Source: Paraglomus occultum
Lineage: Eukaryota > Glomeromycota > Glomeromycetes > Paraglomerales > Paraglomeraceae
NCBI GenBank assembly: GCA_910592205.1
Contig: CAJVPJ010000638.1
Span: forward strand, 1 to 20,288
Length of the DNA: 20,288 bases
Reading direction: 5' to 3'
The notes under the pieces are model-generated. The model searched no databases. It saw only the letters and a list, made by a program, of their open reading frames with translations, and was not told the origin of the DNA. The position numbers were made by a program, and so were the translations under genes. Shown in pieces: positions 2,742-20,288 of this stretch (positions within the stretch are counted from its first letter, which is position 1; every line of letters starts with the position of its first letter).

Positions 2742-4167
2742 TCAGTAAAGTAGAATATAATCATCATCCGCATATCCCATCTCCTTCAAACTTGCACCAA
2801 TTTTATCCAACATGGCTGCTGGACCGCAAGCAACGATTTTTTTCTGCACCATAAGATAATTAAATGAAGCTCCCCTTGAATAAGAGTGACTTGGCTGCCT
2901 TGTTGGAGGTTGGGGAAGAGGTCGCATGCTATTTGGTGATCCAGAGTTAGTTGAACCTTCCGATGGGGAGGTTCTTTCAGTCGTGATAATATCTTGTGTT
3001 CCTTTGTTGATAGTAGTAACTACTTCGTGATTAGTTAAATCTGGTTGATCAGACATATCGTATTGGTCACGAATAGCTAATTTCTGACTGTCTTTTCCAT
3101 CGTAATTACCAGTCACTTCACCAGCTCTCAAAGTCGGGCTGTATCTTTCGTCGAGTTGTCCCGTTGGGTCATAAGCAGTCGGGCTTCTCGGAAAACTCAC
3201 TGTATGCGTATTCATTCCATGATGCAATAACCACGTATGTAACACACTAGTAGTAACATGTCCATGCAAACCTTCCCATTCGTGACCCACTGTTGGTGGA
3301 TTGCTCAACATATAGGTAACTGTCAGTGCTCCTTTAGAGTTTGCCGCCAAACTTTCAAGTTCGAGACCCATAATGATATCTTCAACTCTTTTATTTGCAA
3401 AGAGTAGATGCATAGTAATGTGGCGATCTCGACTGGTGGCGAGAACTTTTAGATGGAAATTGATTAACTGTTTGGTTCGAGGGGAACAAAGTGAGTGAAT
3501 AGGAAAATACGCAAGTGTTAGCTGAAACGATGCATATTACATAACATGACACTAATTTTTCAATTTAACCTACCTGAACCATTGGTGTAATCCCACTTCC
3601 TCCGGCAATCATAACCAATTGATCCCAACAACCGTCAAAACTGTTCGGATTCAACAGCAAGTGGCCTGATGATCTGCCTGTCGTACTTGACCCAGCTGAT
3701 AAATTAGATATTACACTATGTGTTGAACTGAATCTACGTCCCATAATAGTTGATAATTCATTCTGCGTCATATGGGTCACTCCACGACGATCCAACAAAT
3801 CAAACGGTCCCCGAACTTTGAGTTCGTATCCAATTCTTTGATGAGCTAGGTGCTGAGACATTAGACCATGTTCATATACTTTCACAATAATGGAGAACCT
3901 GCGTGATATTCGGCCTTCAACTGGAGTGTAAGCACGGACAACCACTTGACCCTTAACTCGGGCTTGGATTTCGATGTAATCTCCCGGGATAATGCGATCA
4001 CCTTCGGAGTCTTTCAATTGATGAAGTTTAGAAAAAGTGAATTTTATGACAGGACGTTCTGGATCGCCATTAACCAAAGCTTTTTCAACCAGCTGATATC
4101 TTTTGAAAACTCTAACTGAAGTATCCTTTTTGAGATCCGTGACAAAGAACGGTTGTTGCAGTCTAAA
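2742..4167 (-). other. FAD- and NAD(P)H-binding reductase domains (residues about 1143-1583)
   Basis: This is a ferredoxin-reductase-like pair of the cytochrome b5 reductase/nitrate reductase type. The FAD half has RAYTPV (1222-1227; usual RxYTPV), GLMSQHL (1245-1251) and VRGPF (1262-1266). The nucleotide half has MIAGGSGITPMVQ (1330-1342), LLFANKRVEDII and ACGPAAM (1555-1561), and ends in YILLY with no typical C-terminal Phe. Two insertions interrupt the fold: Ser/Thr-rich at about 1272-1319 and Ser/Thr/Pro-rich at about 1431-1547, the second holding RPLPQPP (1524-1530). Both usual binding sites remain, so the reductase should work. NADH preference is likely from the b5-reductase resemblance but is not shown. 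Confidence 0.9.
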
Positions 4168-7100
4168 GTAAGACTGTTCTGATGTTGGCGTCGGCGGTGC
4201 ATCGTCAGCCTTTTCAACATTCCTTTCATCGTAACTGTCACCCTTTATTTTTCCAATTACCATGCCAGCGAATTGTCTCACTGCGAAATTCGTGTGCTTG
4301 TGTCTGGCGATCGGCTCGGATGATTTGTGGAATCGTTCAATGTTGAAATCGTCAATCTTTGCAGACATCGTTTTGCGTCTGCGAAGTTTTTGATCAGGGT
4401 CAAGAGCCTGTTGTTCCCACAGATGTGTATAACGTCCTAACACAGGGCTCACGAGATGGGCTCCTTTTGAATACGCCATCATGTCATTTTTGTCTGTGGC
4501 ATTGGGGTCCGGATCTATCTCTTCCTTTGGTGTTGCTGTTGGCCTGTGAGTGTTGTAAAAGTCTGGTGACAAATGGTTAGAGGGAGATGCATGAGTAATA
4601 TATTAGAATTGCTTGCATAACACGCTGTCTCTATTTCTTGCAATACATACCATTAGTTATATCCGTGCCAATAACGCGATGCAATATCTTCTCACCACCC
4701 GGATGTGAATGAATCCATCTCCTAATATCTGCCACAAATCCATCACAGACAACCAAAAACGCTCCTCTCTGCACACCCTCATTAACTTGATCCCACGTAA
4801 AGTCGGGCATCGCATTAAGTCCTGCGGCATCAAAAAATAGGTCAACTGTCTTCTCTTCTGCTTCAGCTCCGGTACAGGCCTTGATCCGACATTTTCCACC
4901 CATGATTTTCCAGATTTGACCCCCGATGAAAATCAAACAAATCAAAGCGACAACACCAATCAAAGCCCCTTGCCAGGGAACCTTATCTGCACCGTATGTG
5001 ATACAATATACGTTAATGCCCAAGTATAGAGAGAACCTATATGTATTGTACAAGTAATGTGTGAGTTGATTAATCGAGTGAAACAATTATACTCCATTCA
5101 CGCAAACATATTAATATGGCATTTACGGTTACACGCTCACGTTACCATGCTGTAATCATAAGGACCATGCCAAAGTATCGATGCGTTCTTTTAACAACTC
5201 TGAGAAGACCTTCGTTAACTGATTCAATTTTCTGTTGTGACCAATAAGTAGTCAATCCAAATGACATTTGAAGGAAAGTACCGATATAGACTGCTAATCC
5301 AATTCTACCAAAAAATTACAAAATTAGAAAAACGTTTTTAATAAAATAATAAAGACGTCGGCACTGCGTTATACTTACTTTGCGTGATTCGTTTGTAGGT
5401 TGGCGATAGTGGCAATGGCAGCAGCTCCAAATGTGCCAACAAGCAACACGCCAAACAATTGCATGTTCCTGTGAAACTTTAAGTAGAACGTGGTATGTTT
5501 GTAATATCTGATAACGTAAATCGAGGTTGGAAAGATTATGCTGTAAATAGACAGATGCTCATCAGTACTGGTTAATCGATAACTTTAAGCAAAAGATTCG
5601 ACTCACCAGAATATTGTAAACATTCCAAACCCGTGAGCCAATCTGGTCTGCCGTTGTCTCTCTGGAGAAGCTGCTATAGCTGTATCTTGTAAGTTAATAA
5701 CCTTGCCGAGACTAAAATCAACAAGCTGCCTGGCTCTATTTCTGGGTCCGTGATATGTAACAACGTTAGTCGTAGGGTTGAAAGCCATGATCATTTTCAT
5801 TTGCCCTTCTGTGATCGCCTTTCTGCCTGAACTGGCTGCTGCGAGGGGACGATTGAATTCAATCTGGTAAACGGACCCGTTAAGTGTCGTGCTGGTCAAT
5901 TGAAAGTCTTGATGACCCGAGTCAAGAACTGGTGGTTGGTATCCTTTGGAAATGTAATTCCCTAAACTGGCCGAACCAGATGACACCGTTCCTATGATAA
6001 AATCAGCGTCTGTCATGCCATTATCGGACGGACCAAAGCCTATACCAAACCAGCCATTTCCGCTTTCAGTTGCAAAATTGATTAAAAATTGTAGAGTCTT
6101 ATCCGTGACGCCAAAGCGTACTTGATATTCTGGCCATCTAGTCATGTCTCCTGGATATGGATCGGTTATAGGATTTGGTGCATTGCTGAGACTACTGTCA
6201 GTTGGTGGCAAAACAGTCCAAATGCTTGCAGGAAATGTTATGCCTTCCGGCAGTTCATCCGGTGTCAAATTATCGACTATTACATCTCTAAAGGTTCTGT
6301 TACGGAATGTCAATTGCTCAGTGGTACTGAAATAATTTTGAAACCAGAATCGGTCAGTAACGCGATAGCGATCAAACTGTCGGATGAGAGCCGTGTAGAC
6401 AAGCTCCCCAACATTGGCACCAGCAACGTGATCTTCGGCATGCGCACAGACAAACGCTTCACACTTGTCGACAGTGCCATAAACTTGTTGGAGTCTGGCC
6501 GCAATTTCTGCATTTGAGGTGACCTCAGCAAACGAATTTTTACGCGCAAGACCAAAACCTGCGCGGGCGTCGTTGTAAAGAGGGATACCTATCATTACCA
6601 AAAAAAAAAAAATAATTAGCAATAGCATCAGAATGTTAATTTTTTGCAAACTGGCGTGGCAGCAGCATATTGCGCTATTTGTTTACTCACCAAGATCTCT
6701 GCATCTCGAAACATCAAATGCCGCAATCTCGTACTTTAGTTTATTTGCACCAGTCCATGCCCTCGACCCATCCGACACGTATGCGTCAACCTCTTCTTGT
6801 CGTTGACTGGCCATCGATCGAAGAATAGGACCCAAACCGACCCGAAGCAAAAGATCAAATCTTACTGTATCAGACAATGGAAGTTCGGCAAGAGTTTCAC
6901 CGTTGATATTTAATATGTTGTACGTGTTACTGGAGAATACGAGAGTGAGAAAAGATATAAAAGATTCAGATAACGCCATATCCAACAACAACATTTTCAT
7001 TGATCGAATGGCTCGTTTCAATATCCACCTACCTAATCTCACTGTGACCATATCTAAACGCAACAATACTGAAAAACAAGTCTGTTCCGGGTTGTTGATT

Positions 7101-8254
7101 CGGATTATAGCCCGAATATGGTGGTAAGGGACGTCCAGTTACAATTCCCAGATATTCTTCGCTCACGATCTTTTGATACTGTCCAATATTCCATCGCCTA
7201 GCTTCTTGAAAATATTGCTCGTCGGTCCACGTGCTGTTGATCGAGTACAGCCAATCGCACAATCTGTTATGTTCCCTAAGAAATATAGTATTGATGGCCA
7301 GTGTAAAGATGTTTTGTGAACGAGCAAATGGTCCACCTAATTTAAAAGTTCTTGTTGTGTCATTCCATGGAGAATAGCCATTCACCATCAACAATTTTCC
7401 GCGTTGAGAAGCCGTATCTCTTACTGCATTAGACTGTTCAAGTGTCGAACCATACAAAGGATTTAAATCGAGGAATCCAGTTACACCATTTACTCCGAAC
7501 GTGGGGTTTGCGGGATCATAATAAGATCGATTTTGTCTCAGTACGCCAGCATTAGGGTAAGCAACGAGATCGGGACCTGCAGTCATTATATTTGCAGGAG
7601 GAGAGCCAGGAGGGTTATAGTTTGCGTCATCGAGAGGTGCATATATATAGGTCGGTAGGTTGATATTTTCAACTGCTGCACTCGTGTCGTAGGAGATGTA
7701 TTGCCCCAAGAATGTGATCTTTCAATATTAAGAAAAATGAATATTTAAATTATAAAAGACCCTGCACCCAATCGATGTTGTACGACCAAACACAAACATA
7801 ACCAAATATGATTTAGATCGACGCAGCTTACCATGTGTGAAGTTTTACGAAGGCTTTTATAAATGGGAACTTTACTGTCGTTGACTATAAGATTTGTTCC
7901 ATATCTCGACACAATGTTTGACACACATCTTGGCAATGGGTATACATCTGCTGCTAATTGATCTGTACAGCTAGAGTTTATGGCAGTACCAGGCAATACT
8001 CCATCGGTTGGTGTCTTTAGAGGCTGACTCCTTCCATCAACAAAGTTTGCGGTGGGCAAGTCAACACGAAGGTATTTATCACCCGTTGCACCAGCAGTAG
8101 GATAATTCAGATTGTTTCCTGTGCCGTCAATTGCACGATATTCGGTAGATGTGGCAAACTTGCAAGAGAGAAGCAAGCATAGGAACGTGAACGCAAGGTA
8201 AATTTGAATAAAAGAAGTTATAGAAGATTTGTGCGAACGTTTGTGCTTTGCCAT
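2742..8254 (-). CDS. Haem peroxidase-DOMON-cytochrome b561-cytochrome b5-flavin reductase fusion protein
   Basis: Nine exons join without a frame break into 1583 codons: 8254-7832, 7718-7033, 6929-6691, 6588-5607, 5540-5379, 5304-5146, 5036-4651, 4562-3574, 3467-2742. Introns are 66-113 bp with GT-AG ends, and every junction restores a conserved motif. The start is fixed by an in-frame TAA at 8275-8273. Order: signal peptide (hydrophobic residues about 14-31), animal-type haem peroxidase (39-565), DOMON (597-745), b561 helices (766-929), cytochrome b5 (960-1120), FAD and NAD(P)H domains (about 1143-1583). The likely role is to carry electrons from cytosolic NAD(P)H across a membrane to the outer or luminal face, giving reactive oxygen or an oxidised product; this is inference from architecture. 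It is not a NOX/DUOX, as there is no ferric-reductase/gp91 core or EF-hand, and not a psi-factor oxygenase, as there is no P450 domain. No close characterised homologue is known to me, so no symbol is given. The flanking spacers (2.1 and more than 2.7 kb) are the longest in the window. Confidence 0.92.
4240..4810 (-). other. Cytochrome b5 haem domain with a long loop (residues about 960-1120)
   Basis: The first haem ligand is clear: SHPGGE with His995, preceded by FTWDQV and followed by GTDITND. In ordinary cytochrome b5 the second His follows within about 25 residues. Here FYNTH supplies His1018 at nearly that distance, but the usual segment after the second His (H-x-A-x-x-L-x-x-x-x-VG) appears only after a polar insert of about 80 residues, as HKHTNFAVRQF...VIGKI (1100-1118). 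The true second ligand is probably His1100 or His1102 rather than His1018. The insert holds KLRRRKTMS (1071-1079), a basophilic phosphorylation-like stretch. An intron (4650-4563) splits the domain after GTDITN. Confidence 0.85.
4901..5641 (-). other. Cytochrome b561 transmembrane core (residues about 766-929), introns included
   Basis: Five hydrophobic segments can be read: about 768-787, 804-823, 830-852, 874-898 and 906-929. Four conserved His sit in the expected places: LAHGFGM (His768), FHRNMQ (His800), TNHA (His829) and THRYFG (His872). They can hold two haems b, one near each membrane face. An odd number of helices puts the peroxidase/DOMON part outside and the cytochrome b5/flavin part in the cytosol, as an outward electron chain needs. 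The core is split over four exons (5607, 5540-5379, 5304-5146 and 5036 onward), and each splice keeps the helix sequence continuous. The donor at 5145 is GTAACG, weaker than the others; a GTGAGC five bases on would leave an in-frame TAA. Confidence 0.92.
5702..6148 (-). other. DOMON domain (residues about 597-745)
   Basis: This beta-sandwich module has the DOMON pattern GWFGIGFGP followed by GMTDADFIIG, and a late YHGP. The usual haem b ligands of cytochrome-type DOMON domains are a Met and a His; the candidates here are Met641 and His729. The module lies directly before the b561 helices, the same order as in plant and animal DOMON-b561 (CYBDOM) proteins. There it is thought to receive electrons on the non-cytosolic face. 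Here it would link the b561 core to the peroxidase domain. Ligand assignment is by motif only. Confidence 0.85.
6242..8140 (-). other. Animal-type haem peroxidase domain (residues about 39-565), introns included
   Basis: The domain opens with YRAIDGTGNNLNYP (39-52), a start typical of bacterial and fungal members of the animal haem peroxidase superfamily. Other family landmarks are FLDLNPLYG (223-231), ARS with the presumed catalytic Arg274, REHNRL (289-294), FRYGH with the proximal haem ligand His366, SRCRDLG-IPLYND (444-456, equivalent to SRDHGLPGYN of myeloperoxidase), and TDRFWFQN (527-534). The distal site reads GQYISYD (146-152). Compared with the usual GQFLDHD, Gln147 and the Ca-binding Asp152 are kept, but the distal His is Tyr151 and the haem-linking Asp is Ser150. 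Haem may still bind, but normal peroxide cleavage should be impaired. The domain follows the signal peptide and so should lie outside the cytosol. Confidence is high for the family and moderate for the loss of activity. Confidence 0.9.
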
Positions 8255-10343
8255 GGATAAAGGAGAATGAAATTATATAATACAGAAACACTGATTGGCA
8301 ATGATTATTTGATACAAAATTAGTTTGGGTAAGGTGTAATAGATAGACTTCTACAACGTTAATGTTGCATCTCGTTCTACTCGTTCTCCGCTTAGGGAAA
8401 GTAAGTCCAAGAGTTATTGGATGATAAAGACCTTAAATATATGCATCCATGCTGCGTAGGTGTGACAAACATTGTATGATAGGCGAATCACAAACCCATA
8501 ATAGTCAGTATGAAGACAATCAATAAGCGCCGATGTATTAGTATAACCGAGCATATATTAATATTAATATTTTCCCCGACAAGTTTGTTTTCCAAACTCC
8601 GAAAAGCAGGAAAAAAATTTTTTTATCAATTTTATCGATCACATCAGCACCTTATCTTAACAATGTTGTGTAACTTCGGAGCAATATTCGGTCAACAAAC
8701 GTATCTGATGTTAATATAGTCAAAAATAGATTACGATATGACATTGATTAGAAGGCAAGTATGACATGGTAGGTATACTTGGTTGTAACGCATGTTAACC
8801 GTTTAATTATCGAGATGCCCGCAATTCCCCCAGGACATTATAATAATGGGACAATCATCAAGTAGCTTAAAAAGGTTAGTAAGTCTGCGCGGATAGCCAG
8901 AGCCATTTAGGAAACACTATTGTACAAGCCTGGTGTTATATACTATTATTAGACATACAATAATATAATATATTACGTAACTCGAACATCTTAATAGAAA
9001 ACGGGTCCCTTGTCCAACATATGAAAAGGCTAGCGATTAGATTGTGAGCTCCTATCAACAATTCATACCTTGACAGTTTGTCTGGTTGCCATTATCTATA
9101 TTTCTCCAATGACAAGAGAAAGAATGTCTTTAAGTAAACACAAGTTATACAGACGCCATATCTTGGAATGACCATTCTGTTTCTTGTCGGTTTCCCCCGC
9201 TTGTCCAAGATTCCCAAAGGCATTCAAATGACTTGTCGCAATATTACGTCTTTTGTATCACCGGACAATCACCAACGTGACTCTGTTTATTTGGTTTGCG
9301 CAGCCATAATGTCTACTTTGTACGCACACAATAGAGTCACCAAACCCTTGCATATCTAAACGTTAATTTCGTTATTGATAGGAGAAGCTAACCAAGCATC
9401 ATTACATCATAGCGACAGTCTCCATTGCATTATATAAAAATGGCTTGGAAATGTAGAAAAAAATTTTGTATGACAGCATTATAATTAAGGAAATTCTGAT
9501 AAGGATAAGGTTTGTTACTATTACCACCAACTTTAATATTGTTTAGTATAATAGTAAACATATCAATATTATAATTTTAGTGAATATGAACCAAAGCCAT
9601 GATATTTATCGAAAAGCGGCAAAGATAGCCAGCCAAATGCGCAAATACAATAAAGAACTCATTTAACAAATGCCACATTTCTTAACTGATTCGATACCAG
9701 TTTTTCCTTGTTCATGAAAGTTTGTGTCCATTGAGGAACAAATTGTTGGGTTTAATCGATCAAAAGATAAATACCCTACTAGCTTTTCAGGATACCCTTT
9801 GTTATTGCATTATTATTATTCTAGTCCTGACCAAACACGACACTAACCAAATTAAGATTCATTTTGGGTATTTGCTAAAAATATTTACTTATCAGCATTA
9901 ACACCGACCACTCATTGTGTCAAACATCGCTCCGTAACGAAAAGTAGTCACAAATAGTGAACAAGCAAGCATTCGAATGCTAAGATTGTTACAATGTCCG
10001 ATCTCAGATTTAACCGGGACCTAGTTCTGACATTCCGAGTCCAAGGCATCAAGTGTAATAACCGGTCAATTTGAAACATAATATCTCCTGTGATTCTGCC
10101 GTGCTGTTAAAAAATAATGGACGAGTTTCACGACATGTCTCTTAGGTTAATGAAATATTAATATGGGCAAGCTTATTTTCTTTGCACATAGCCTATCAGT
10201 ATGGATTGACCTTTCATCAATCCAAAGCATCGGTACATCGGTACATTCAGCTTTGATTATCTACACGTGATTTATTTCAATAGTCAATACGTCGTTTTCT
10301 CAAATTCTTTATATTACTTTCGCATTTTTTTTACACGGAAAGC
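8255..10343. other. Divergent spacer between the oxidase and arginyl-tRNA synthetase genes
   Basis: About 2.1 kb of AT-rich DNA lies between the two start codons. The only open frames (8510-8719 and 9168-9359, plus strand) have no domain and no splice partners. Near the synthetase gene are an E-box CACGTG (10264-10269) and a TATA-like TTTATATTA about 30 nt before its ATG. TGACTC (9280-9285) and GAGTCA (9333-9338), Gcn4-type half sites, occur about 1 kb from the synthetase start, rather far to be persuasive. A short direct repeat, CATCGGTA twice, lies near 10229-10244. Nothing else was recognised. Confidence 0.5.
8271..8298 (-). promoter_or_regulatory. CCAAT and TATA-like elements before the oxidase gene
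   Basis: On the minus strand a CCAAT box (8298-8294) lies 40 nt before the start codon, and a TATTATATAATT run lies about 17-28 nt before it. The in-frame stop that fixes the start codon overlaps the A/T run. The close spacing implies a very short leader if this is the core promoter; a start further upstream is equally possible. Confidence 0.3.
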
Positions 10344-12782
10344 ATGTCGCGTCTTTATTCTCGCATAATCTCACTTCCGTCCATGTGCACCATAATGCAA
10401 TTCAAACAATCTATAGCCACTCAACTATCCACCATCACAGGCCATCCGGAAACGCAATTGATTGAAATGATTGAAAGACCAAAAAATAAAGATTTTGGAC
10501 AATTTTCAATAGCAGTATACAAGTTGATGCAAGGTGGAATGCAAAAGAAGAGGAAACCGGATGAAGCAAAAAGTGTAAATGTTGAAGAAAATGCAAGAGC
10601 GGAAGAAGGGGGGAAAAGGAAAACTGCAGATGAATTCTGTAAAGAACTAGCCGAAAAGGTGAGGTGATGATTGATTGATCCACGATCAAACTATTAGAAC
10701 CGTATTTGTTTAACACATCTGGCATTATTTTACCCTAGTTTCAAAGTTCTCCAACGATATCGAGTACAACACCAATAGGCCCATATCTCAACTTTCACGT
10801 TAAAAAACCTGTATTTATCCAGCGTGTTGTTGACGAGGTTTTCGGTCAGAAAAATCTTTACGGAACATTCAAATCTCATGGACAAGGAAAAACCGTCGTG
10901 ATCGATTTTAGTTCACCCAACATTGCAAAACCATTTCATAGTGGTCATCTGAAAAGTACTATTCTCGGAAACTTTGTGAAAAGGATACATGATGCTTTGG
11001 GATACAAGACCATCGCTATAAACTATTTAGGAGATTGGGGCAAACAATATGGTAAGGAAATAATGATAAGATTCGAAGGGAAAAAAAAAAGGGGAAACAT
11101 TGCATTGGAGGTTTTGGTTATTCGATAACATCCGCTTTTAACATAATCTTAATAATCAGTTTGTTAAATTATAGACAATCACCATCATAACTCATAGTAT
11201 CAGTGGTTAATTGGTAGGATTATTGGCTGTTGGATTCAACACGTATGGATCACATGACGAGTTGGACAAAGACTCTATCAAGCATCTTTATGATGTGTAT
11301 GTGAAAATAAGCCAGGAAGCAAAGCACAATCCTACGATTGATCAAGAAGCAAATGATTATATCAAGAGAATGGAAGATGGTAAGTTTATGCGATTTGAAT
11401 AACTTGCACTTGTACAATTAGATGTCCAACATTAATGGGCGATAGCTATACAGTTAGTTATGTATGATTATCAGTTAATATCAAACAAGAAAAAAAAATT
11501 ACAATTCTCTCATAGGGGACGAATCAGTACTCAGCCTATGGCGAAAGTTCAGAGATCTAAGCATCAAAGAATACAAATCAATGTACAAAAGATTAAACAT
11601 TGAATTTACCTCATACTCGGGTGAATCTGAAACTCAACCTCTCATTCCTCAAGTTGAGCGCCTTCTTACTACCAAGAATCTTTTATCCACTCAAGACGAC
11701 GGTACATGCACAATCGATCTCTCCGAATACAATCTCGGTACTCCGCAGATCAAACGCATGGATGAGACATCTGTATACCTCCTTCGTGACATTGCTGCAG
11801 CCACACAACGCAGACAGCTGTATAACTTTGATCAAATGTTTTACGTTGTTGGGATGAGCCAGCAAAATCATTTTCAGAGATTGTTTAAAATTCTCGAGCT
11901 GACACAAAATCGGGAAGGCAATGGTGGGGAAAAATGGGCAGAGAACTTGGAACACGTCGGCTTTGGGATGATTCGAGGTGTGTCGACGCGGCATGGCACG
12001 GCAGTGTTTTTGAAAGACATATTGGATACTGCCAAGCAACGCATGTTGGACATTATGATGGGAAATGAGGAAAAGTATCGGGATATCGTTAATAGCGGAC
12101 CTAGTCGACAGGCCAAGAAGGCGGATAATAGTCGGTTTGTAGACAATTTGTCCCTTGATGATGACCAAATGGCATCAAGTGATGAGTATAATGAGGTTGG
12201 ATTGTATGGAAAGGAAGCAGCTGAAAAGATAGCCGATATTGTTGGGATATCTGCACTTGTAATACATGATTTTATGAGGGATAGATATAAGGACTATACC
12301 TTTGATTGGAAGAAAACTATAGATGCTCATGGGCATAACGGTGTCTACTTACAATATGCACACGCAAGGCTGAGCAGGTGGGAAGACAAATAGAACGATG
12401 GTGAGCACGTTGGAAATTTATCATTACTAACCTTTACCACTTGATCTATTTTCCAACTAGTATTGAAGAAAAAGCGGGAGTTACACTGAATCCCAAGGCT
12501 AATATTAAAGCTCTTAAAGAACAAGCAGCTTTTGATTTAGCTTACCAAATATCACTCTACCCTGAAATAGTTCTCCAAGCATACAAAGATTTCCAACCAT
12601 GTGTGATTGTAAACTATCTTTTCAATCTATCTCAAAGCATATCTCATGCTCATAGGACATTGAGGGTCAAGGGTATGAGTCCTGGAGTAGCGGAAGCGCG
12701 ATTACTGTTATTCTGGTGTGCTAGAGTGACCTTGGGGAACGGATTGAACCTGTTGGGATTGACTCCGTTGGAGAAGATGTAA
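10344..12782 (+). CDS. Arginyl-tRNA synthetase
   Basis: This class I synthetase charges tRNA-Arg with arginine in cytosolic translation. Five exons (10344-10658, 10739-11051, 11218-11379, 11516-12377, 12461-12782) give 657 residues, slightly longer than yeast RRS1. Seen in order: an N-terminal tRNA-contacting (Add-1 type) domain in exon 1, the ATP-binding region VIDFSSPNIAKPFHSGH with HIGH-equivalent HSGH at 172-175, LGDWGKQYGLLAVGF across the exon 2-3 junction, STRHG at 420-424 where fungal enzymes usually have STRKG, then the DALR anticodon-binding domain ending LTPLEKM. ARLSSIEEKAG is restored across intron 4, which confirms the weak donor GTGGGA. Two polar insertions stand out, about 73-95 and 455-490. 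The first 18 residues are Arg/Ser-rich with further Met at 14 and 18, which may allow mitochondrial as well as cytosolic forms. Certain as to family. Confidence 0.96.
12425..12431 (+). promoter_or_regulatory. Perfect TACTAAC branch site in the last intron of the arginyl-tRNA synthetase gene
   Basis: TACTAAC lies 29 nt before the CAACTAG acceptor at 12460. It supports this intron (12378-12460) despite its unusual GTGGGA donor. Related CTAAC or TTAAC boxes can be seen near the 3' ends of several oxidase and MSH6 introns. Confidence 0.7.
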
Positions 12783-13692: not shown

Positions 13693-16600
13693 TCACTGAC
13701 CAATCTGACACTTTTTCTCAAATTCCTCTGCAATTTCCTCGGCTCTGGAAACAACCACCTCTGGCACTCCGGCCATTCTAGCCACGTTCAGTCCATACGA
13801 TCTCGGGCAAACTCCGTTTATCAGCTTATATAAAAACGTCACCCGTCGTTCTTCCTCATTGACTTCACACTGCATATGCATCAATTTTACAGCCCTGTCT
13901 GATTTAAACTCATCGGTCAGTCTGACATAGTGAGTCGAAAACAATCCAACACATTTAGTCTCCCTCACAAGGTGGGTTAATACGGAATAGGCAATGGCAT
14001 ATCCATCATGAGTCGATGTTCCACGACCGAGTTCATCAAGAATAACCATTGAGCGGTGAGTGGCTTCGTTAAGAATTTTTGCTGTTTCAATCGATTCGAC
14101 CATAAAGGTTGACTGTCCACTAAGAATACGGTCGTTTGCTCCGATGCGAGTGAAAATACGGTCAAAAGGTGTCAGTGTGCAAGAAGACGCCGGAACATAG
14201 CAGCCGAGTTGAGCCATTATTATTGCTACACAAGTCTATTCAAGTGGACGGACAAGTAAGCATGAAGAATCGGAATATGGATGCCAAAAATCAATACTCG
14301 CGTGTTGCTCGTCATTCTTACCTGTCTTAGTAAGGTCGACTTCCCACCCATGTTGGGTCCTGTCAACAAAATCATGTTGGGCTCATCGCTACCTAGTGAG
14401 ATATTATTAGGGATGAAATCGTTTGCGATTCTGTTATGAAAAAGAGTAATTGTTAATAGATGAAGAGAGGGAAGAAACAATGGGACTCAATGCTAAATTT
14501 ACCTCGGAGTAATACACGGATGTCGGAGATCTTCAAATTTAATAAAGTTCTTGTCGGCCTCAACAAACTGGGGCATACATCTTGTTGCTATCCGTTGGTA
14601 ACATTCGTATTAGTATTCATACCAACATAAACATGCCGAGGCAATAGCAATCGATATGTACAACGCTATCCAGTTTCCCTTATTCCACTTACCACCAAGT
14701 GCTAGCGAACACTTAGCTAAACTCACTAAGCAATCTATCTCCGCCACAATTTTCACGGCTTGTAACCATTCTGTATACGACGCATCGAATTTCTCGTATA
14801 ATCTATCACGGACCAGACGGAGGACGGATGATTGAATTTCACGAGATTCTTGAAGTTCTCGAATTAGTTTTTGTAGATGCGGAGTCCAATAACGATTTAC
14901 GACCTGTATGGAAATAAACAATAGGTTAAAGTCAAATTATTACCCAGTCACTTCACTAGTGTACAATACGAACCTTTGTACTAGTTAATTTTGTCCACTC
15001 GCCGGGAACTTTAACACTGCCCGGAACCTCAAGTTGGTATATCTCTTTACCAACATCCTTGTATTTCGCAGTCACTCTATAAACAAAAGAGAAAATCGTA
15101 AACTTTCTTCCGCACATCGTGTTTGATTGAATAGTCGTTTCCAACATACAGCTCTCACAATCCAACAACACTTCTCAAATTCCCAGCATGTGTACTCACC
15201 CAAGTTTTTTTGAAACCGTCATGCGATACCGTTCAAGTTCTTCTTCGATTGACCTCACTTTATTTCGACTTTCGTCGTAATCGTCATAAGCCCCATCTCG
15301 CGGCGTTATAAATCCGTTCGCCTTGGCATCTTTATACTCAAACACACTCCGGAAATATTCAAGTTTTGACCTCAAATCAGGCATAGAGGAAACAAGATAA
15401 AGTAAACGAGACGAGGAACAAATTTTCGATTGGTACGACGGAGTCGTGAGAACGTGCAAGCTGTTTACAACATTTTCAAAGCTTTCCAACATTCCCACAA
15501 ATTCTCCCACTTTACATCCTCGGGCATGCACTCTGCTTATGATTCGTTCTAAATCAGTAAGTTCTCTGCCCCACGATTCCACCCAGGTTCTTAATTCATG
15601 TTCTCTGATAAATACTTCTACACCGTCTTGTCTTTCTTTGATTTCCTCAATCTTCCATAGCGGCTGGCAGGTCCACTTTCGCAACGTTCTTTTTCCAAAC
15701 GCCGTCGTGCAATGATCTATTAATTCGAATAATGTCCCTGCGGTGCTTCCATCATAACTGTTGGTGAATACTTCGAGATTCGATAATGTACGGCTGTCAA
15801 GAAGGAGGTACGAAGGATGCAGAGGAGTGTAATAAGAGAAGTTGGCAAGTGAAAGAAGAGCACGTTCCAGTTGCAATGTGCGTAGGTAATACGTTAAACC
15901 ACCAAGGGCTGAAAGAAGATGTGGGGATGTTTTGCTTGCAGTTAGGATAGGAGGAAGTTCATCAGTTTCGTTGGATTCGGCCGCGTCATTACTACGAGTG
16001 CCCTCACGCTCGTCAACTGTTTTCTTAAAATACTGTCCAATTGTCAACTCTCTTATCGTATCTTCGGCATTCCAGAACTCTGTCCCACTCTTTATCCCGT
16101 TCAGAATTGGCTCGTCTAGACAGTTTTTCAAAACCTTCATTGACTTTGGACTGAGCAACCCTTTTTCAAATACAATTTCTTTCGGCTTTACCTGCACAAT
16201 TAGCGTTTCGAATTGTGACCTATCGGCATCATCCGTAAAAGAGGAAAAGTGAAATGAGGCCGTGGAGGTATCGACGAAAACAATGCCAAACGTTGGACAA
16301 GAGTCAGCAGAAGAAAAGTATTCCTTTATTGACATGCAGTATGTAGAATGCGGTGTTGAAAGCATCGAAGGGTCGACCAACGTGCCAGCAGTTAAGATTG
16401 TGGTTAATTCGCGTCGAATTATTTTCTCGGGTTGGCTCGAAGCTGATTTGGAAGAGGGTTTATTCGACTTTTCCCTCATTTCTTTCGCGAGGGCGGTCTC
16501 CATCTGATCTACCTTGGCAACCTTATACCCCGCGGCGATAAATTTGCCTGCCCAATGTTCGAAACTCATTTCAGGTATTCCAACCATTCTCATGTTGACC

Positions 16601-18012
16601 CTATCCGTCAATTTCAAGTCGAACTCTTTGTGACCAATATCTGCGTCTTTCTCGTACAGCTCGTAAAACTTTCCTTTCTTGAAGAATACGACGGTATCCC
16701 AGTGCGTGCCCTTGATTTCCCAGAATTGCTTTTCAAATGGTGTAAACTTTTTCCACGCATCGGGTGGAATGTACAGCGTGCGCGAGTCGTAGTTGGGTGA
16801 GTTTTCTGGATTGCCTTCAGCATCACGAACATTGAGAAGCCAAGCATAACGTTCTTCATTTTTGGATTTAAAGTCCGTTTGCCGTTGTTTTTGACGTTCC
16901 TTTTTACGGTCTTGTGGAGATAAGACGGCCGTGCTGGTTGTCGGAGGTGAAGAGGTTGTTTTGGTTGGAGATGAAGAGTTTTTAGAAAAGGCAAAATTTT
17001 GCAAGCGAGAGTCATTGTTAGTGCTGGACAAAGTGGATATTGAGTCAGTTGATGTGTTGGAACGTTTCGCAGTGTGGCCTGCGGCTGTTACAGCAGATTT
17101 GCCTTTTTTCGAGGAAGAGGGCGGCGAAGATTTTACTGGACTGGAGGAGGGTGTAGTTGGAGGAGAATCGCCCGAGTCATCTTGGTATTCATCATCGTCT
17201 CTGTTCAAGTCCTCTGATTCGTTTTCTGATTCGGATAGCATGTTCCTGTAATCCGTAATCCGACTTTTAAATGAACGGGGTTGTTTTTTACGGAACGTAT
17301 ACTTGCGAGGGGTTGCTGGATTGTCTACATCCATGACTTCTGGTGATGTCGTTACAGAGTTGGAATCCGAAAAGACTTTTTGCTTTTTCTTTTGGTTGAG
17401 TTGATCATTTGATGCACCTATGCAGGAAGTGTAGAATATATCGCGGTTATTATAAACAAATTCAATCATTCATTAAACGATCGATTATTCTTTTGACATG
17501 TAAATCCGGCCTTTTCACAAAGGAATAAGTCTTTTTTATAACATTACCAACATACCATGGAATTCCTGCATTCCGTCATCACCGTCTTCATCCTCTGACA
17601 GTACAATCGTTTTACGTTTCTGTTTCAGCTAAGAAAAAAAACATGCCCGATAACGACGAGGGGAAAGGTAGTTTCAGAATGAATTAAACAATCTAATTTT
17701 AATTGAAACATATCCCTCCACCACTCCATTTTTATTTACCCGTTTAAGCTGCTTCTTCTTCTCGGGAACGTCTACCTCCATCTCTTCTTTTATTTTAATA
17801 TTTTCGAGACGAATATCCTGCGAGTCATTAGGGCAAGTACGCGTATCCTCAACAGTATTGTCAACAGTCTTCTTTGAGCGACTAGAATCGAGCGCGGCAG
17901 GTTTGCTGGTAGGCTTGGGATTGCAAACATTATCAGGTGTAAAAAAGGCCTTAATACTCGACTGCGTTTTGCCAGTCTGAGGTGTCGATGTTCGCTTGGA
18001 AGCGTTCTTCAT
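13693..18012 (-). CDS. MSH6: DNA mismatch repair protein MSH6 (MutS homologue)
   Basis: As MutS-alpha with MSH2, MSH6 recognises base mismatches and small loops in the nucleus. Eight exons (18012-17740, 17628-17556, 17417-15200, 15076-14974, 14903-14693, 14587-14503, 14430-14322, 14235-13693) give 1204 residues. An in-frame TAA 12 nt upstream fixes the start. In order: a PCNA-binding box QSSIKAFF (17-24); an acidic, Ser/Pro/Lys-rich linker to about residue 300, without a PWWP domain as usual in fungi; the mismatch-binding domain with GKFYE (364-368), whose Phe366 and Glu368 are the Phe-x-Glu pair that marks MSH6 rather than MSH2 or MSH3; connector, lever and clamp domains; then the ATPase with Walker A GPNMGGKS (1012-1019), ILDELGRG (Asp1091, Glu1092) and STHY (His1126). 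Exon 5 joins at GTAAGT (14692), giving LGATRCMPQ; the GTGGTA three bases earlier is in the same phase but less conserved. Intron 4 has an unusual GTTCGT donor. All catalytic residues seem intact. Confidence 0.97.
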
Positions 18013-18681
18013 GTGTTTCTGTTACGAAAGAAAGCAATAATCTCGATCTTTATTAGAAGTAATGGAAGAACAATGTGGGGCAATTCTTCGCGTATAATAT
18101 CGTTGGAATGTGGTGAATATTTAAACGTGCGTGTTGTAACGGAGGGCGCGTCGTGAAAATGTGAATGTTGAGATGGTGTGGTGATCAACTCCCCAAATAG
18201 ACAAATTGCATGTGTTTCGCTGAGAAACACTGGTTGTTGCTACGTCAGCATCTATGTTCGAAATAACAAGGATAAATTTACGAGTGGTGCCCAATTTTTG
18301 GTCGGCACCTAAAATCTGACTACGACGGCTGGAGATGTAGAATAATCTGTAATCTAATGCAGTATCACTTAAGACTTTCGGCCATGTCTTCCTACAATGT
18401 TTTATATGCTAATTCTGAATAAAAGGTATAATTAATAATAATCAGCTTGAGTTAAGGCTGTTTACGTGAGTGTCAGATTAAAATAATGTCTATCGGAATT
18501 AGATGAGATAGAATATTGTGTGTGTCATGCAGTGTACATGATACAGCAGAACTTTAACCAATAATAAATAACCAAGAGGTATAGAAACAAACCGAACACT
18601 TTAGATTATATTGGGCCTTCTTCGACTGCCATCTTGGTACAAGACGACTTACAACGACAAGCGCATATTTCTACGTCAACA
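18013..18681. promoter_or_regulatory. Divergent spacer and promoters of MSH6 and the RING-like gene
   Basis: Both genes read outward from these 669 bp. Visible elements: a perfect 7-bp stem, GTGTTTC-gctga-GAAACAC (18212-18230); a dyad GGTGCC/GGCACC (18286-18291, 18304-18309) enclosing CCAA/TTGG; ACGTCA at 18242-18247 and again at 18673-18678, just before the RING-like start codon; CCAAT (18558-18562) and a TATATT (about 18607-18612) upstream of the RING-like gene. None is proven functional. No open frame of note lies between the genes. Confidence 0.4.
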
Positions 18682-20288
18682 ATGAACAGCACTGTAAATC
18701 AAGGAAATTGCCCTAAACTTGTACACAGCCTGATTGAACAAGGACACACCTCAGCAGATGCGCAAATAGAGGAATTGTTAAAGAACGTACATCGTCTAGA
18801 GAATCTTTACGCACTCAAATACGTTCTTGAACATGAAGGAACGTCTGTGTCATCTGAAGTATTGATTGCGGCTATGGAGAGTTTGTTTCCTCAAAAAACT
18901 GACAAAGTTTTTCTAAAAGAAGCGCCTGTTAAGTTAGAGTGGCAATTACGAATTGTTATATTCATATTGGAGCAATTATGTGAGCGCGAATCTCAATTCA
19001 CATGTCAATTTCTTGATGATACTAGAAACGCTATCTCTGTATACAAAAAGACGCACCAAAGAATCATGCAGCATGAAGGGAAAGTCTGGAAAGCTAATTG
19101 TGCAGAATTTAATGAACCGAACAAAAATATCAAAAGCTTTAAATGCAATTATGATAATGCATATCTCTTCAAAATTATTAAAAATATGTTAAATAGTATT
19201 TGTGGCGATAAAAACTACCAGCAGACAAATTTAGATCGAGCCATTGCTGCATTAAAAGCTCTACTTGTTTCTGCTCCTGCATTAGTTAAAATTGGGGTTA
19301 AAGTGACCACTAGTGTTGAAGTTCCTCTTGGTGATTTCGACCTGGAGAGAGCATGGAATTATCTTGCGGAAGCATTCCAGATTGAACCATCAGGTGAACC
19401 ATGGTACACAACTTGGAGAAGGCTTATTGAATTGCAAAAGACTCTTGATGAGTGGAGTCAGGAAAAAGATTTTGGCATTCCAACAGCCTTTAAGGAACGA
19501 TTGTTTCTTGAATTTCTCTGGTTTCATATAAGTTTGTGTTATTCTGAGAATGCAAATGAAGAAGTTAGTGATGTGCTTTGGTTTGGGATTTTAGATCTTG
19601 TTCAACAACTTATCCAGAATACGTTTTCTGCAGCTACACAAGCTATCTGCTATTACCTAGCATTAGACTCACTCAACAATGCAGTCAGTGAGTTTATCCA
19701 ATTTAAGTCAATTGAAGTCTTATTGAGTCTTGAAGCTAAAAACAAGGAATTATTTGTTACAACACCTGATGATATTGCTAGTTGTGATGAGGAAGATTTA
19801 CCAAAACTGGTGGAAATTTATCATTATTTGAAAGAAAAATTAGAAATTGAATCAAAGCTGTGCATGAAATATTCACAAGACACAACAGTGGTGGTGAATC
19901 AGGATGTGAAAGGCAAAGGTAAAGAAAGAAGTGATGGTAAAAGCCCAGTCGACTATATTGCAGAAGATTTTAAATGCCCAATTACTTGTGACACTGTTGA
20001 AGGGTTATATCAGCTCAACTGTCAACATTCAGTCAGTCCCAAGGTTTTTTCATCTTTGGAGAAACAGGAATGCCCCTACTGTAGAACTGAGATTAAAAAG
20101 AATGGTGTGTATTATCTACCACAGCAGACTATATACAACAATGTTCAGCATTACATCACAGAAGGTGATTATACTGCAACTATTGAAATCAACACAGTCA
20201 AAGAACTAGTTGTTCAACATGATGATCTTAAAAAACAAAAGAAAAAGAGTAGGAGGCAGTACAATTCTGGTTCTACTTTGAACACAAT
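18682..20288 (+). CDS. RING/U-box-like protein, 3' end outside the window
   Basis: The frame is open from ATG 18682 to the right edge: 535 complete codons with no stop and no intron, in contrast to the intron-rich genes beside it. An in-frame TAA at 18565-18567 with no ATG between supports the start. Residues 1-405 look alpha-helical and match no family I can name. A Lys/Gly-rich link (KGKGKERSDGK, 410-420) leads to a zinc-finger-like segment: FKCPITCD (430-437), LNCQH (445-449) and ECPYCRTEI (463-471), then a basic stretch KKQKKKSRR (517-525). Potential ligands are Cys432, Cys436, Cys447, His449, Cys464 and Cys467. The fifth and sixth positions of a classical RING are absent, so it binds one zinc or folds like a U-box. 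A ubiquitin-ligase role is possible but unproven. CPxxC-CQH-CPYCR proteins of this kind are, as I recall, numerous in arbuscular mycorrhizal fungi. The base composition is lower in G+C than MSH6. Confidence 0.82.
   Translation, partial: MNSTVNQGNCPKLVHSLIEQGHTSADAQIEELLKNVHRLENLYALKYVLEHEGTSVSSEVLIAAMESLFPQKTDKVFLKEAPVKLEWQLRIVIFILEQLCERESQFTCQFLDDTRNAISVYKKTHQRIMQHEGKVWKANCAEFNEPNKNIKSFKCNYDNAYLFKIIKNMLNSICGDKNYQQTNLDRAIAALKALLVSAPALVKIGVKVTTSVEVPLGDFDLERAWNYLAEAFQIEPSGEPWYTTWRRLIELQKTLDEWSQEKDFGIPTAFKERLFLEFLWFHISLCYSENANEEVSDVLWFGILDLVQQLIQNTFSAATQAICYYLALDSLNNAVSEFIQFKSIEVLLSLEAKNKELFVTTPDDIASCDEEDLPKLVEIYHYLKEKLEIESKLCMKYSQDTTVVVNQDVKGKGKERSDGKSPVDYIAEDFKCPITCDTVEGLYQLNCQHSVSPKVFSSLEKQECPYCRTEIKKNGVYYLPQQTIYNNVQHYITEGDYTATIEINTVKELVVQHDDLKKQKKKSRRQYNSGSTLNT

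What the first reader, a model, noticed from the sequence alone, without database searches (positions are those of the whole stretch)
2742..8254. Single-chain outward electron pathway ending in a peroxidase-type domain: a DUOX-like design built from other parts
Joined exons show signal peptide, haem peroxidase, DOMON, b561, cytochrome b5 and an FAD/NAD(P)H reductase in one 1583-residue protein. Each module keeps its main cofactor motifs, and the five-helix topology puts donor and acceptor on opposite sides of the membrane. In animals, DUOX joins a peroxidase domain to a NOX core; here the NOX core is replaced by b561 plus b5 plus b5 reductase. I know of no characterised fungal enzyme with this order. 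It may be a convergent system for extracellular oxidant production or substrate oxidation.
Basis: partly seen in the sequence, partly recalled or inferred. Interest (0 to 1): 0.88.

Follow-up and report, generated by a model that had tools for sequence, protein, structure and literature searches.

The report
Fungal six-module transmembrane redox enzyme
A mycorrhizal fungus carries one large membrane protein that appears built to pass electrons from inside the cell to a peroxidase-shaped head outside it; the same design recurs across many plant-partner fungi, but the head has lost key residues of a working peroxidase.

Summary
Observation confirmed. On the minus strand, 8254..2742, nine exons give one 1583-residue protein: signal peptide, animal-type haem peroxidase, DOMON, b561 helices, cytochrome b5, FAD/NAD reductase. 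Neighbouring modules share exons (the peroxidase end, DOMON and the first b561 helix lie in one uninterrupted exon). The genome is most likely Paraglomus occultum, an arbuscular mycorrhizal (AM) fungus. It is no one-off: 39 AM-fungal database entries carry peroxidase+DOMON+b5+FAD+NAD, plus one transcript from an unidentified eukaryote.

DOMON and b561 haem ligands are almost fully conserved, but the peroxidase pocket is not a peroxidase's: the distal catalytic His is absent in every family row with a residue there (0 of 46), and the proximal Asn is Asp in 52 of 52. Fold and proximal His persist. The second b5 His is missing in half the covered rows.

Most likely: an NAD(P)H-driven trans-plasma-membrane reductase (CYBDOM logic, with b5 and b5 reductase in place of ascorbate) ending in a non-peroxidatic haem domain. 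The terminal acceptor is unknown. It is DUOX-like by convergence only. Eight paper searches that bear on it (of ten run) showed no description of it.

The parts
7832..8254 (-). exon 1: start codon, signal peptide (hydrophobic stretch aa 11-29), start of peroxidase domain
   Evidence: hydropathy
7033..7718 (-). exon 2: peroxidase, with distal-helix motif GQYISYD (distal His replaced by Tyr151), Ca-site motif VTGFLDLN and proximal His366 (FRYGH)
6691..6929 (-). exon 3: peroxidase, with Asp442 where animal peroxidases have the proximal Asn
5607..6588 (-). exon 4: end of peroxidase, whole DOMON and start of the first b561 helix (His768) in one uninterrupted exon
5379..5540 (-). exon 5: b561, with His800 and His829
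5146..5304 (-). exon 6: b561, with His872
4651..5036 (-). exon 7: last b561 helix and most of cytochrome b5 (His995, HPGG)
3574..4562 (-). exon 8: end of b5 (His1018), linker, FAD domain (RAYTP) and start of NAD domain (GGSGITPM)
2742..3467 (-). exon 9: rest of NAD domain, low-complexity insert aa about 1436-1548, CGP motif, stop codon
6263..8140 (-). An_peroxidase domain (aa 39-558), interrupted by introns 1-3
5780..6130 (-). DOMON domain with Met641; the second predicted haem ligand His729 lies just after it
4898..5647 (-). b561 helix domain (aa about 764-930), interrupted by introns 4-6
   Evidence: five helices in homologue model
4534..4798 (-). cytochrome b5 domain (aa 964-1022), interrupted by intron 7
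3222..4005 (-). FAD and NAD binding domains of b5-reductase type, interrupted by intron 8 (3573..3468)

Best explanation
A single-chain, NAD(P)H-driven trans-plasma-membrane reductase. Cytosolic NAD(P)H reduces the FAD of the C-terminal b5-reductase module, which passes electrons to cytochrome b5, then to the inner (His800/His872) and outer (His768/His829) b561 haems, then to the DOMON haem (Met641/His729) and probably to the His366-bound haem of the peroxidase-fold head. From there they reach an external one-electron acceptor, most likely a ferric or cupric chelate. The b5 and reductase modules replace the ascorbate that powers plant CYBDOM proteins. The head is a repurposed, non-peroxidatic haem domain. 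Shown by computation: architecture, candidate ligands and their conservation, peroxidase fold and five helices in a homologue's model, loss of the distal pocket. Inferred: haem occupancy, electron direction, plasma-membrane location, acceptor.
Against: No biochemistry. The b5 second axial His is absent in 22 of 44 covered rows, so a standard bis-His b5 is not universal. The NAD-module motifs are less constant (first Gly 38 of 45, CGP Cys 36 of 44 covered rows), partly through poor gene models. The insert inside the NAD module is large and unexplained. Metal as acceptor is borrowed from plant CYBDOM proteins; nothing in the sequence names the acceptor.
Confidence: 0.5

Rival explanations
1. Convergent DUOX: the chain reduces O2 outside the cell to superoxide or H2O2, and the peroxidase-fold head serves as a scaffold or O2/H2O2 site, as in DUOX whose peroxidase domain is also degenerate.
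Against: No NOX core, EF-hands or FAD_binding_8 in the window protein; the genome has separate FAD_binding_8 loci. b561 proteins are best known as metal or ascorbate-radical reductases (abstract starts; passages).
Confidence: 0.22
2. NAD(P)H-fed peroxide or hydroperoxide reductase: the peroxidase-fold haem receives electrons through the chain and removes plant-derived H2O2 or lipid peroxides, a cytochrome-c-peroxidase-like role helped by the His366-Asp442 pair.
For: Proximal Asn-to-Asp change in 52/52 covered rows creates a His-Asp pair as in cytochrome c peroxidase (recalled). Two outside rows with Asp there, P0065 and P0083, keep the distal His, so Asp need not mean a dead enzyme. Arg445, partner of the proximal triad in DdPoxA (PMC5787809, passages), is kept in the window protein. 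The head is strongly conserved.
Against: Distal His lost in 46/46 covered rows and the distal Arg/Glu not conserved in place, so peroxide cleavage should be slow. An Asn-to-Asp change impairs myeloperoxidase (recalled; the paper is not held).
Confidence: 0.14
3. Oxygenase: the head binds and activates O2 with electrons supplied by the chain, oxidising an extracellular or membrane substrate such as a lipid or phenol.
Against: Those enzymes use a tyrosyl radical and need no reductase for that step (recalled). The window has Tyr151 at the distal position but the family mostly has Phe or Met there. No substrate evidence.
Confidence: 0.08
4. Artefact: several genes wrongly joined, or a decaying gene.
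For: Several database models of the family are fragments or skip helices (P0006, P0007, P0040, and P0044 with P0111). No transcript from this species was available.
Against: Modules share exons; separate full-length models in many AM fungi; a Trinity-assembled transcript ORF with the same order in an unidentified eukaryote (P0056); at least three intron places (introns 4, 7, 8) fit the match ends on paralogue contig C77 (other introns differ).
Confidence: 0.03

Closest known systems
Plant CYBDOM metalloreductases (Arabidopsis HYP1 and CRR)
   Same: HYP1: signal peptide, outer DOMON with a modelled Met/His haem pair, five-helix b561 with two His pairs, outward electron flow (passages). CRR: a CYBDOM protein, seen only as a search listing with the start of its abstract.
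   Different: HYP1 is described as DOMON plus b561 only and uses cytosolic ascorbate. Here a peroxidase head, b5 and reductase are added and electrons would come from NAD(P)H.
DUOX (dual oxidase)
   Same: N-terminal peroxidase-fold head outside, haem-bearing helices, cytosolic flavin reductase; peroxidase domain catalytically degenerate.
   Different: DUOX has a ferric-reductase/NOX core and EF-hands, absent here. The literature says DUOX lost the proximal His (PMC4420034), though the mollusc DUOX P0092 shows His at that column in my alignment; here the proximal His is kept. Peroxidase domain on a different branch.
Animal-type haem peroxidases (LPO, MPO, Dictyostelium DdPoxA)
   Different: Distal His lost, haem-ester Asp lost, proximal Asn replaced by Asp.
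Fungal linoleate diol synthases (Ppo)
   Same: An_peroxidase-type module fused to another redox module.
   Different: Their partner is a P450; none of the AM-fungal relatives returned here lists PF00067.
NADH-cytochrome b5 reductase with cytochrome b5
   Same: FAD RxYT, GGxGITPM and CGP motifs; PDB matches to b5 reductases.
   Different: Fused to transmembrane and outer modules; long insert inside the NAD module.
DOMON-bearing ferric reductases and sponge DspNOX
   Same: Show that electron-transfer modules (DOMON, b561) are repeatedly bolted onto reductase cores (PMC3591440 passages; PMC9524095 passages).
   Different: Both keep a NOX/ferric-reductase core; no peroxidase head joined to DOMON-b561-b5 is mentioned in the passages seen.

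Membership tests
DUOX | N-terminal peroxidase-homology domain outside the membrane | tested here: met
   domain and fold; outside location inferred from signal peptide and topology
DUOX | NOX core (ferric reductase helices, FAD_binding_8, NAD_binding_6) | tested here: not met
   one search lists B561, FAD_binding_6 and NAD_binding_1 only for the window protein; NAD_binding_6 (PF08030) is listed for some relatives beside NAD_binding_1
DUOX | EF-hands | tested here: not met
   none
Catalytically active animal haem peroxidase | peroxidase-cyclooxygenase fold | tested here: met
   Pfam 285.5 bits; fold match of homologue P0020
Catalytically active animal haem peroxidase | proximal His | tested here: met
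   49 of 49 covered rows, 6 gaps
Catalytically active animal haem peroxidase | distal His | tested here: not met
   0 of 46 covered rows, 9 gaps. Of 12 outside rows, P0055, P0056, P0062, P0064, P0065, P0067, P0083 and P0089 keep it; P0057, P0058, DUOX P0092 and the doubtfully aligned P0096 do not
Catalytically active animal haem peroxidase | proximal Asn | tested here: not met
   Asp in 52 of 52 covered rows, 3 gaps; outside the family P0065 and P0083 also have Asp while keeping the distal His
Catalytically active animal haem peroxidase | distal Arg | tested here: inconclusive
   an Arg or Lys lies one or more residues off the aligned place in many rows
CYBDOM | DOMON followed by five-helix b561 with two His pairs | tested here: met
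   domains; His columns; five helices in the model of homologue P0020, (hydropathy alone finds four in the window protein)
CYBDOM | DOMON Met/His haem ligands | tested here: met
   Met 52/52, His 45/46 covered rows; assigned by analogy with HYP1, not by a structure with haem
CYBDOM | ascorbate as cytosolic donor | not testable with these tools
   needs assays; the fused b5 and reductase argue for NAD(P)H instead
Cytochrome b5 / b5 reductase | b5 bis-His haem ligands | tested here: met
   met in the window protein (His995, His1018, 23 residues apart); second His in only 22 of 44 covered family rows
Cytochrome b5 / b5 reductase | FAD and NAD motifs | tested here: met
   RAYTP, GGSGITPM, CGPAAM in the window protein

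The most novel reading that the evidence does not exclude
A transmembrane oxidoreductase class so far seen almost only in AM fungi and a close relative, in which an animal-peroxidase fold was stripped of its peroxide-cleaving residues, given a His-Asp proximal pair, and turned into the extracellular terminal haem of an NAD(P)H-powered DOMON-b561-b5-reductase chain: an independent, non-NOX answer to the DUOX layout, kept in many copies and possibly working at the plant-fungus interface.
Probability: 0.4. Interest if true: 0.8.

Novelty: new variant of a known kind. Interest (0 to 1): 0.6.

Why it matters
AM fungi partner with most land plants (recalled), and how they handle iron, oxygen and reactive oxygen at the root interface is poorly understood. 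A conserved, multi-copy NAD(P)H-powered outward electron pathway would be a testable candidate. If the degenerate peroxidase head still takes electrons, it shows a peroxidase fold converted to a terminal electron-transfer or reductase role, and a layout that evolution reached separately from DUOX. It also warns that 'heme peroxidase' is a misleading label for these deposited proteins.

Tried and rejected
First acceptor for intron 8 (1601 aa) rejected in favour of the one giving 1583 aa, because none of 14 homologues has the 18 extra residues. 'NOX replacement' rejected: FAD_binding_8 loci exist on C71, C20, C601 and C447 (not resolved into NOX and ferric reductase). 'Peroxidase-less ancestor among relatives': a search with the C-terminal 1024 residues found 22 proteins, all AM fungal; the three without a peroxidase domain are P0106 and P0109 (partial models) and P0111, which is numbered next to P0044 on a contig of equal length, hence probably a split model. 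Models P0040, P0045 and P0046 lack DOMON or b561 helices; read as poor gene models, not tested. Organism of P0056 could not be identified. The tree is a quick LG+G4 tree with long-branch warnings; it supports the AM-fungal plus Endogonales clade (SH-aLRT 100) but does not place P0056, P0057, P0058 or P0065. Protein searches scored only the 8000 candidates sharing most words, so rarity outside AM fungi is not proved. Haem distances could not be computed: model coordinates were not in the Python box. In one search the listed rows cover the peroxidase part (19-564; three mouse DUOX1 rows run on to 903 at rmsd 27 A, not meaningful), so DOMON, b561 and b5 folds were not tested by fold search. One search translated exon 4 in a wrong frame and (an E. 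coli record) was irrelevant. The b561 locus on C69 (L021) was not worked out. Two of the ten paper searches were on side questions (NOX in AM fungi, myeloperoxidase Asn).
Full report
WHAT IS THERE. Pfam-A gives six families in the order stated, each above its curated cut-off. Exon 4 (6588..5607) carries the end of the peroxidase, all of DOMON and the start of the first b561 helix without a break; exon 7 carries the last b561 helix and most of b5; exon 8 carries the end of b5, FAD and the start of NAD. So no intron separates one module from the next: introns fall inside modules. A hidden second gene between peroxidase and DOMON is thereby made very unlikely, although transcripts were not available.

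WHOSE GENE. The genome is a 32.3 Mb, 1408-contig assembly. The contigs carrying its two other full-length paralogues, C77 (48,381 bases) and C606 (20,992 bases), have exactly the contig lengths listed for the P. occultum proteins P0002 and P0003, so the source is almost certainly Paraglomus occultum, an AM fungus (Glomeromycotina, Paraglomerales). This is an inference from lengths. P0001, 91% identical and collinear, is a second P. occultum sequence on a 7.6 kb contig. In the held assembly it matches only the window's gene at that level, so it may be an allele, a recent duplicate or another isolate.

DISTRIBUTION. A whole-protein search gave 14 hits, all AM fungi. A profile search gave 95 hits: 50 from AM fungi (P0001-P0011, P0015-P0051, P0053, P0054), one from Jimgerdemannia flammicorona (P0052; Endogonales) and 44 others (P0055-P0098). 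A search with the C-terminal 1024 residues gave 22 hits, all AM fungal. By the precomputed Pfam lists I count 39 AM-fungal entries with PF03098+PF03351+PF00173+PF00970+PF00175 among the 111 distinct proteins, with or without the weak B561 hit. They come from Paraglomus, Gigaspora, Scutellospora, Cetraspora, Racocetra, Dentiscutata, Acaulospora, Diversispora, Entrophospora, Funneliformis and Rhizophagus. The only non-fungal full set is P0056, a 1341-residue Trinity-assembled transcript ORF from an unidentified EukProt organism with the same order (B561 at 22 bits, just under its cut-off of 23). P0052 has peroxidase and DOMON and ends with a CGPxxM motif like the reductase end, so its model probably skips the middle exons (inference). 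Searches score only 8000 candidates each, so absence elsewhere is not proved; but animal and bacterial peroxidases of about 24-34% identity were scored, so a full-length fungal homologue of higher similarity would have been expected to show.

THE PEROXIDASE POCKET. In DdPoxA the distal residues are Gln97, His101 and Arg233 with Glu236, and the proximal triad is His325, Asn403 and Arg406 (PMC5787809, passages). Aligned to the family, DdPoxA WGQFLIHN corresponds to FLGQYISYD in the window. At the distal-His column, 46 of 55 rows (window plus P0001-P0054) have a letter: Phe 27, Met 14, Tyr 3, Ser 1, Ala 1, His 0; one Phe comes from a truncated model (P0012) whose placement is doubtful. The haem-ester Asp column holds no Asp or Glu in 45 covered rows. 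The proximal His is present in 49 of 49 covered rows; the proximal Asn is Asp in 52 of 52; two Ca-site Asp are kept in 45 of 46 and 53 of 53. The distal Arg is not conserved in place, but a basic residue often lies one position off, so I call it inconclusive. Controls, 12 rows outside the family: eight (P0055, P0056, P0062, P0064, P0065, P0067, P0083, P0089) keep the distal His; the GPCR-linked P0057 and P0058, the DUOX P0092 and the doubtfully aligned P0096 do not. Against a simple reading, P0065 and P0083 have Asp at the proximal Asn column and yet keep the distal His, and P0056, with the same architecture, keeps distal His and proximal Asn, so loss is not a necessity of the architecture. 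The same genome also encodes a separate secreted peroxidase on C47 with distal His and Arg motifs kept (FFGQFVNHD, GDTRCSE). Recalled, not read: an Asn-to-Asp change in myeloperoxidase abolishes chloride oxidation.

THE ELECTRON PATH. The model has five long helices at 731-762, 769-794, 801-829, 836-871 and 875-910. The four b561 His map to P0020 residues 741, 773, 802 and 845, one in each of helices 1-4. A hydropathy scan of the window protein finds only four of the five (helix 3 is under the threshold) plus the signal peptide and one weak soluble stretch. With a signal peptide in front and more positive residues in the loops after helices 1, 3 and 5 (K+R 4, 5 and 4 against 1 and 1, loops chosen by hand), the outer pair is His768/His829 and the inner pair His800/His872. 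Seven N-glycosylation sequons lie in aa 37-762 and two in aa 930-1583. This matches HYP1, in which H211-H278 and H245-H314 are modelled to hold the two b561 haems and M90/H174 the DOMON haem (PMC10784544, passages). HYP1 takes electrons from ascorbate; here fused b5 and b5-reductase modules would supply them. Against a uniform mechanism: the second b5 ligand is found in only 22 of 44 covered rows (Pro 17, Asn 3, Thr 1, Lys 1 otherwise). In the 20 chosen rows it is in 9 of 10 of subfamily A (not P0023) and 0 of 10 of subfamily B.

EVOLUTION. In a quick tree of 92 peroxidase domains, 49 AM-fungal rows and Jimgerdemannia form one group (SH-aLRT 100), split into subfamily A (27 rows, the window here; support 99) and B (22 rows; 99, with Jimgerdemannia attached at 82); DUOX falls with mostly animal peroxidases (84). 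Long-branch warnings apply. Distal-pocket loss is thus most simply a single event before the two subfamilies split, and likeness to DUOX is convergence.

LITERATURE. Ten searches of the held library were run. Eight bear on this architecture and two on side questions (20, 57); each lists only its best-ranked papers, and I read only passages of the papers opened. None showed a description of this architecture. PMC10629195 (passages) notes animal-like haem peroxidases in Mucoromycota and likens their architecture to peroxidase+P450; none of the AM-fungal relatives returned here lists a P450 domain. A word search of the P. occultum genome paper (PMC9453076) and of the Gigaspora rosea survey (PMC4771724) finds no 'peroxidase' in their main text. 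Subscription papers and preprints are mostly not held.

VERDICT. A real, conserved and, as far as searched, uncharacterised single-chain redox protein family of AM fungi. It works most plausibly as an NAD(P)H-powered outward reductase with a repurposed peroxidase-fold head. DUOX-like in layout, not a DUOX; CYBDOM-like in its core with a new power supply and a new head.

Noticed in passing
L019 (contig C47), about 3913-6361, minus strand: A separate secreted animal-type haem peroxidase in the same genome, no DOMON match there, with distal motif FFGQFVNHD and GDTRCSE kept.
   Followed up: partly
window protein aa 140, 1100 and 1102: Three extra His identical in 20 of 20 chosen family rows: His140 just before the distal helix, and His1100/His1102 in the b5-FAD linker. 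The linker pair might supply the b5 ligand missing in subfamily B; untested.
   Followed up: partly
P0057, P0058: Peroxidase + DOMON fused to a class C GPCR seven-helix domain (PF00003) in unidentified eukaryotic or metagenomic entries; distal His also lost. Pfam scan confirmed for P0058.
   Followed up: partly
P0001: A second P. occultum sequence 91% identical to the window's protein, not found as a separate locus in the held assembly.
   Followed up: partly
window 10284-12782, plus strand: Arginyl-tRNA synthetase exons (tRNA-synt_1d found in 11479-12390).
   Followed up: partly
window 13693-17469 (possibly to 18021), minus strand: MutS homologue (MutS I, II, III and V) with a long acidic and Ser-rich N-terminal part, MSH6-like by layout.
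   Followed up: partly
window 18568-20286, plus strand: 573-residue frame running off the window, no Pfam hit, with a CPITC...CPYC zinc-finger-like stretch.
   Followed up: no
window protein aa about 1436-1548: Low-complexity insert inside the NAD module, variable in length and sequence across the family (24% identity in subfamily A).
   Followed up: no
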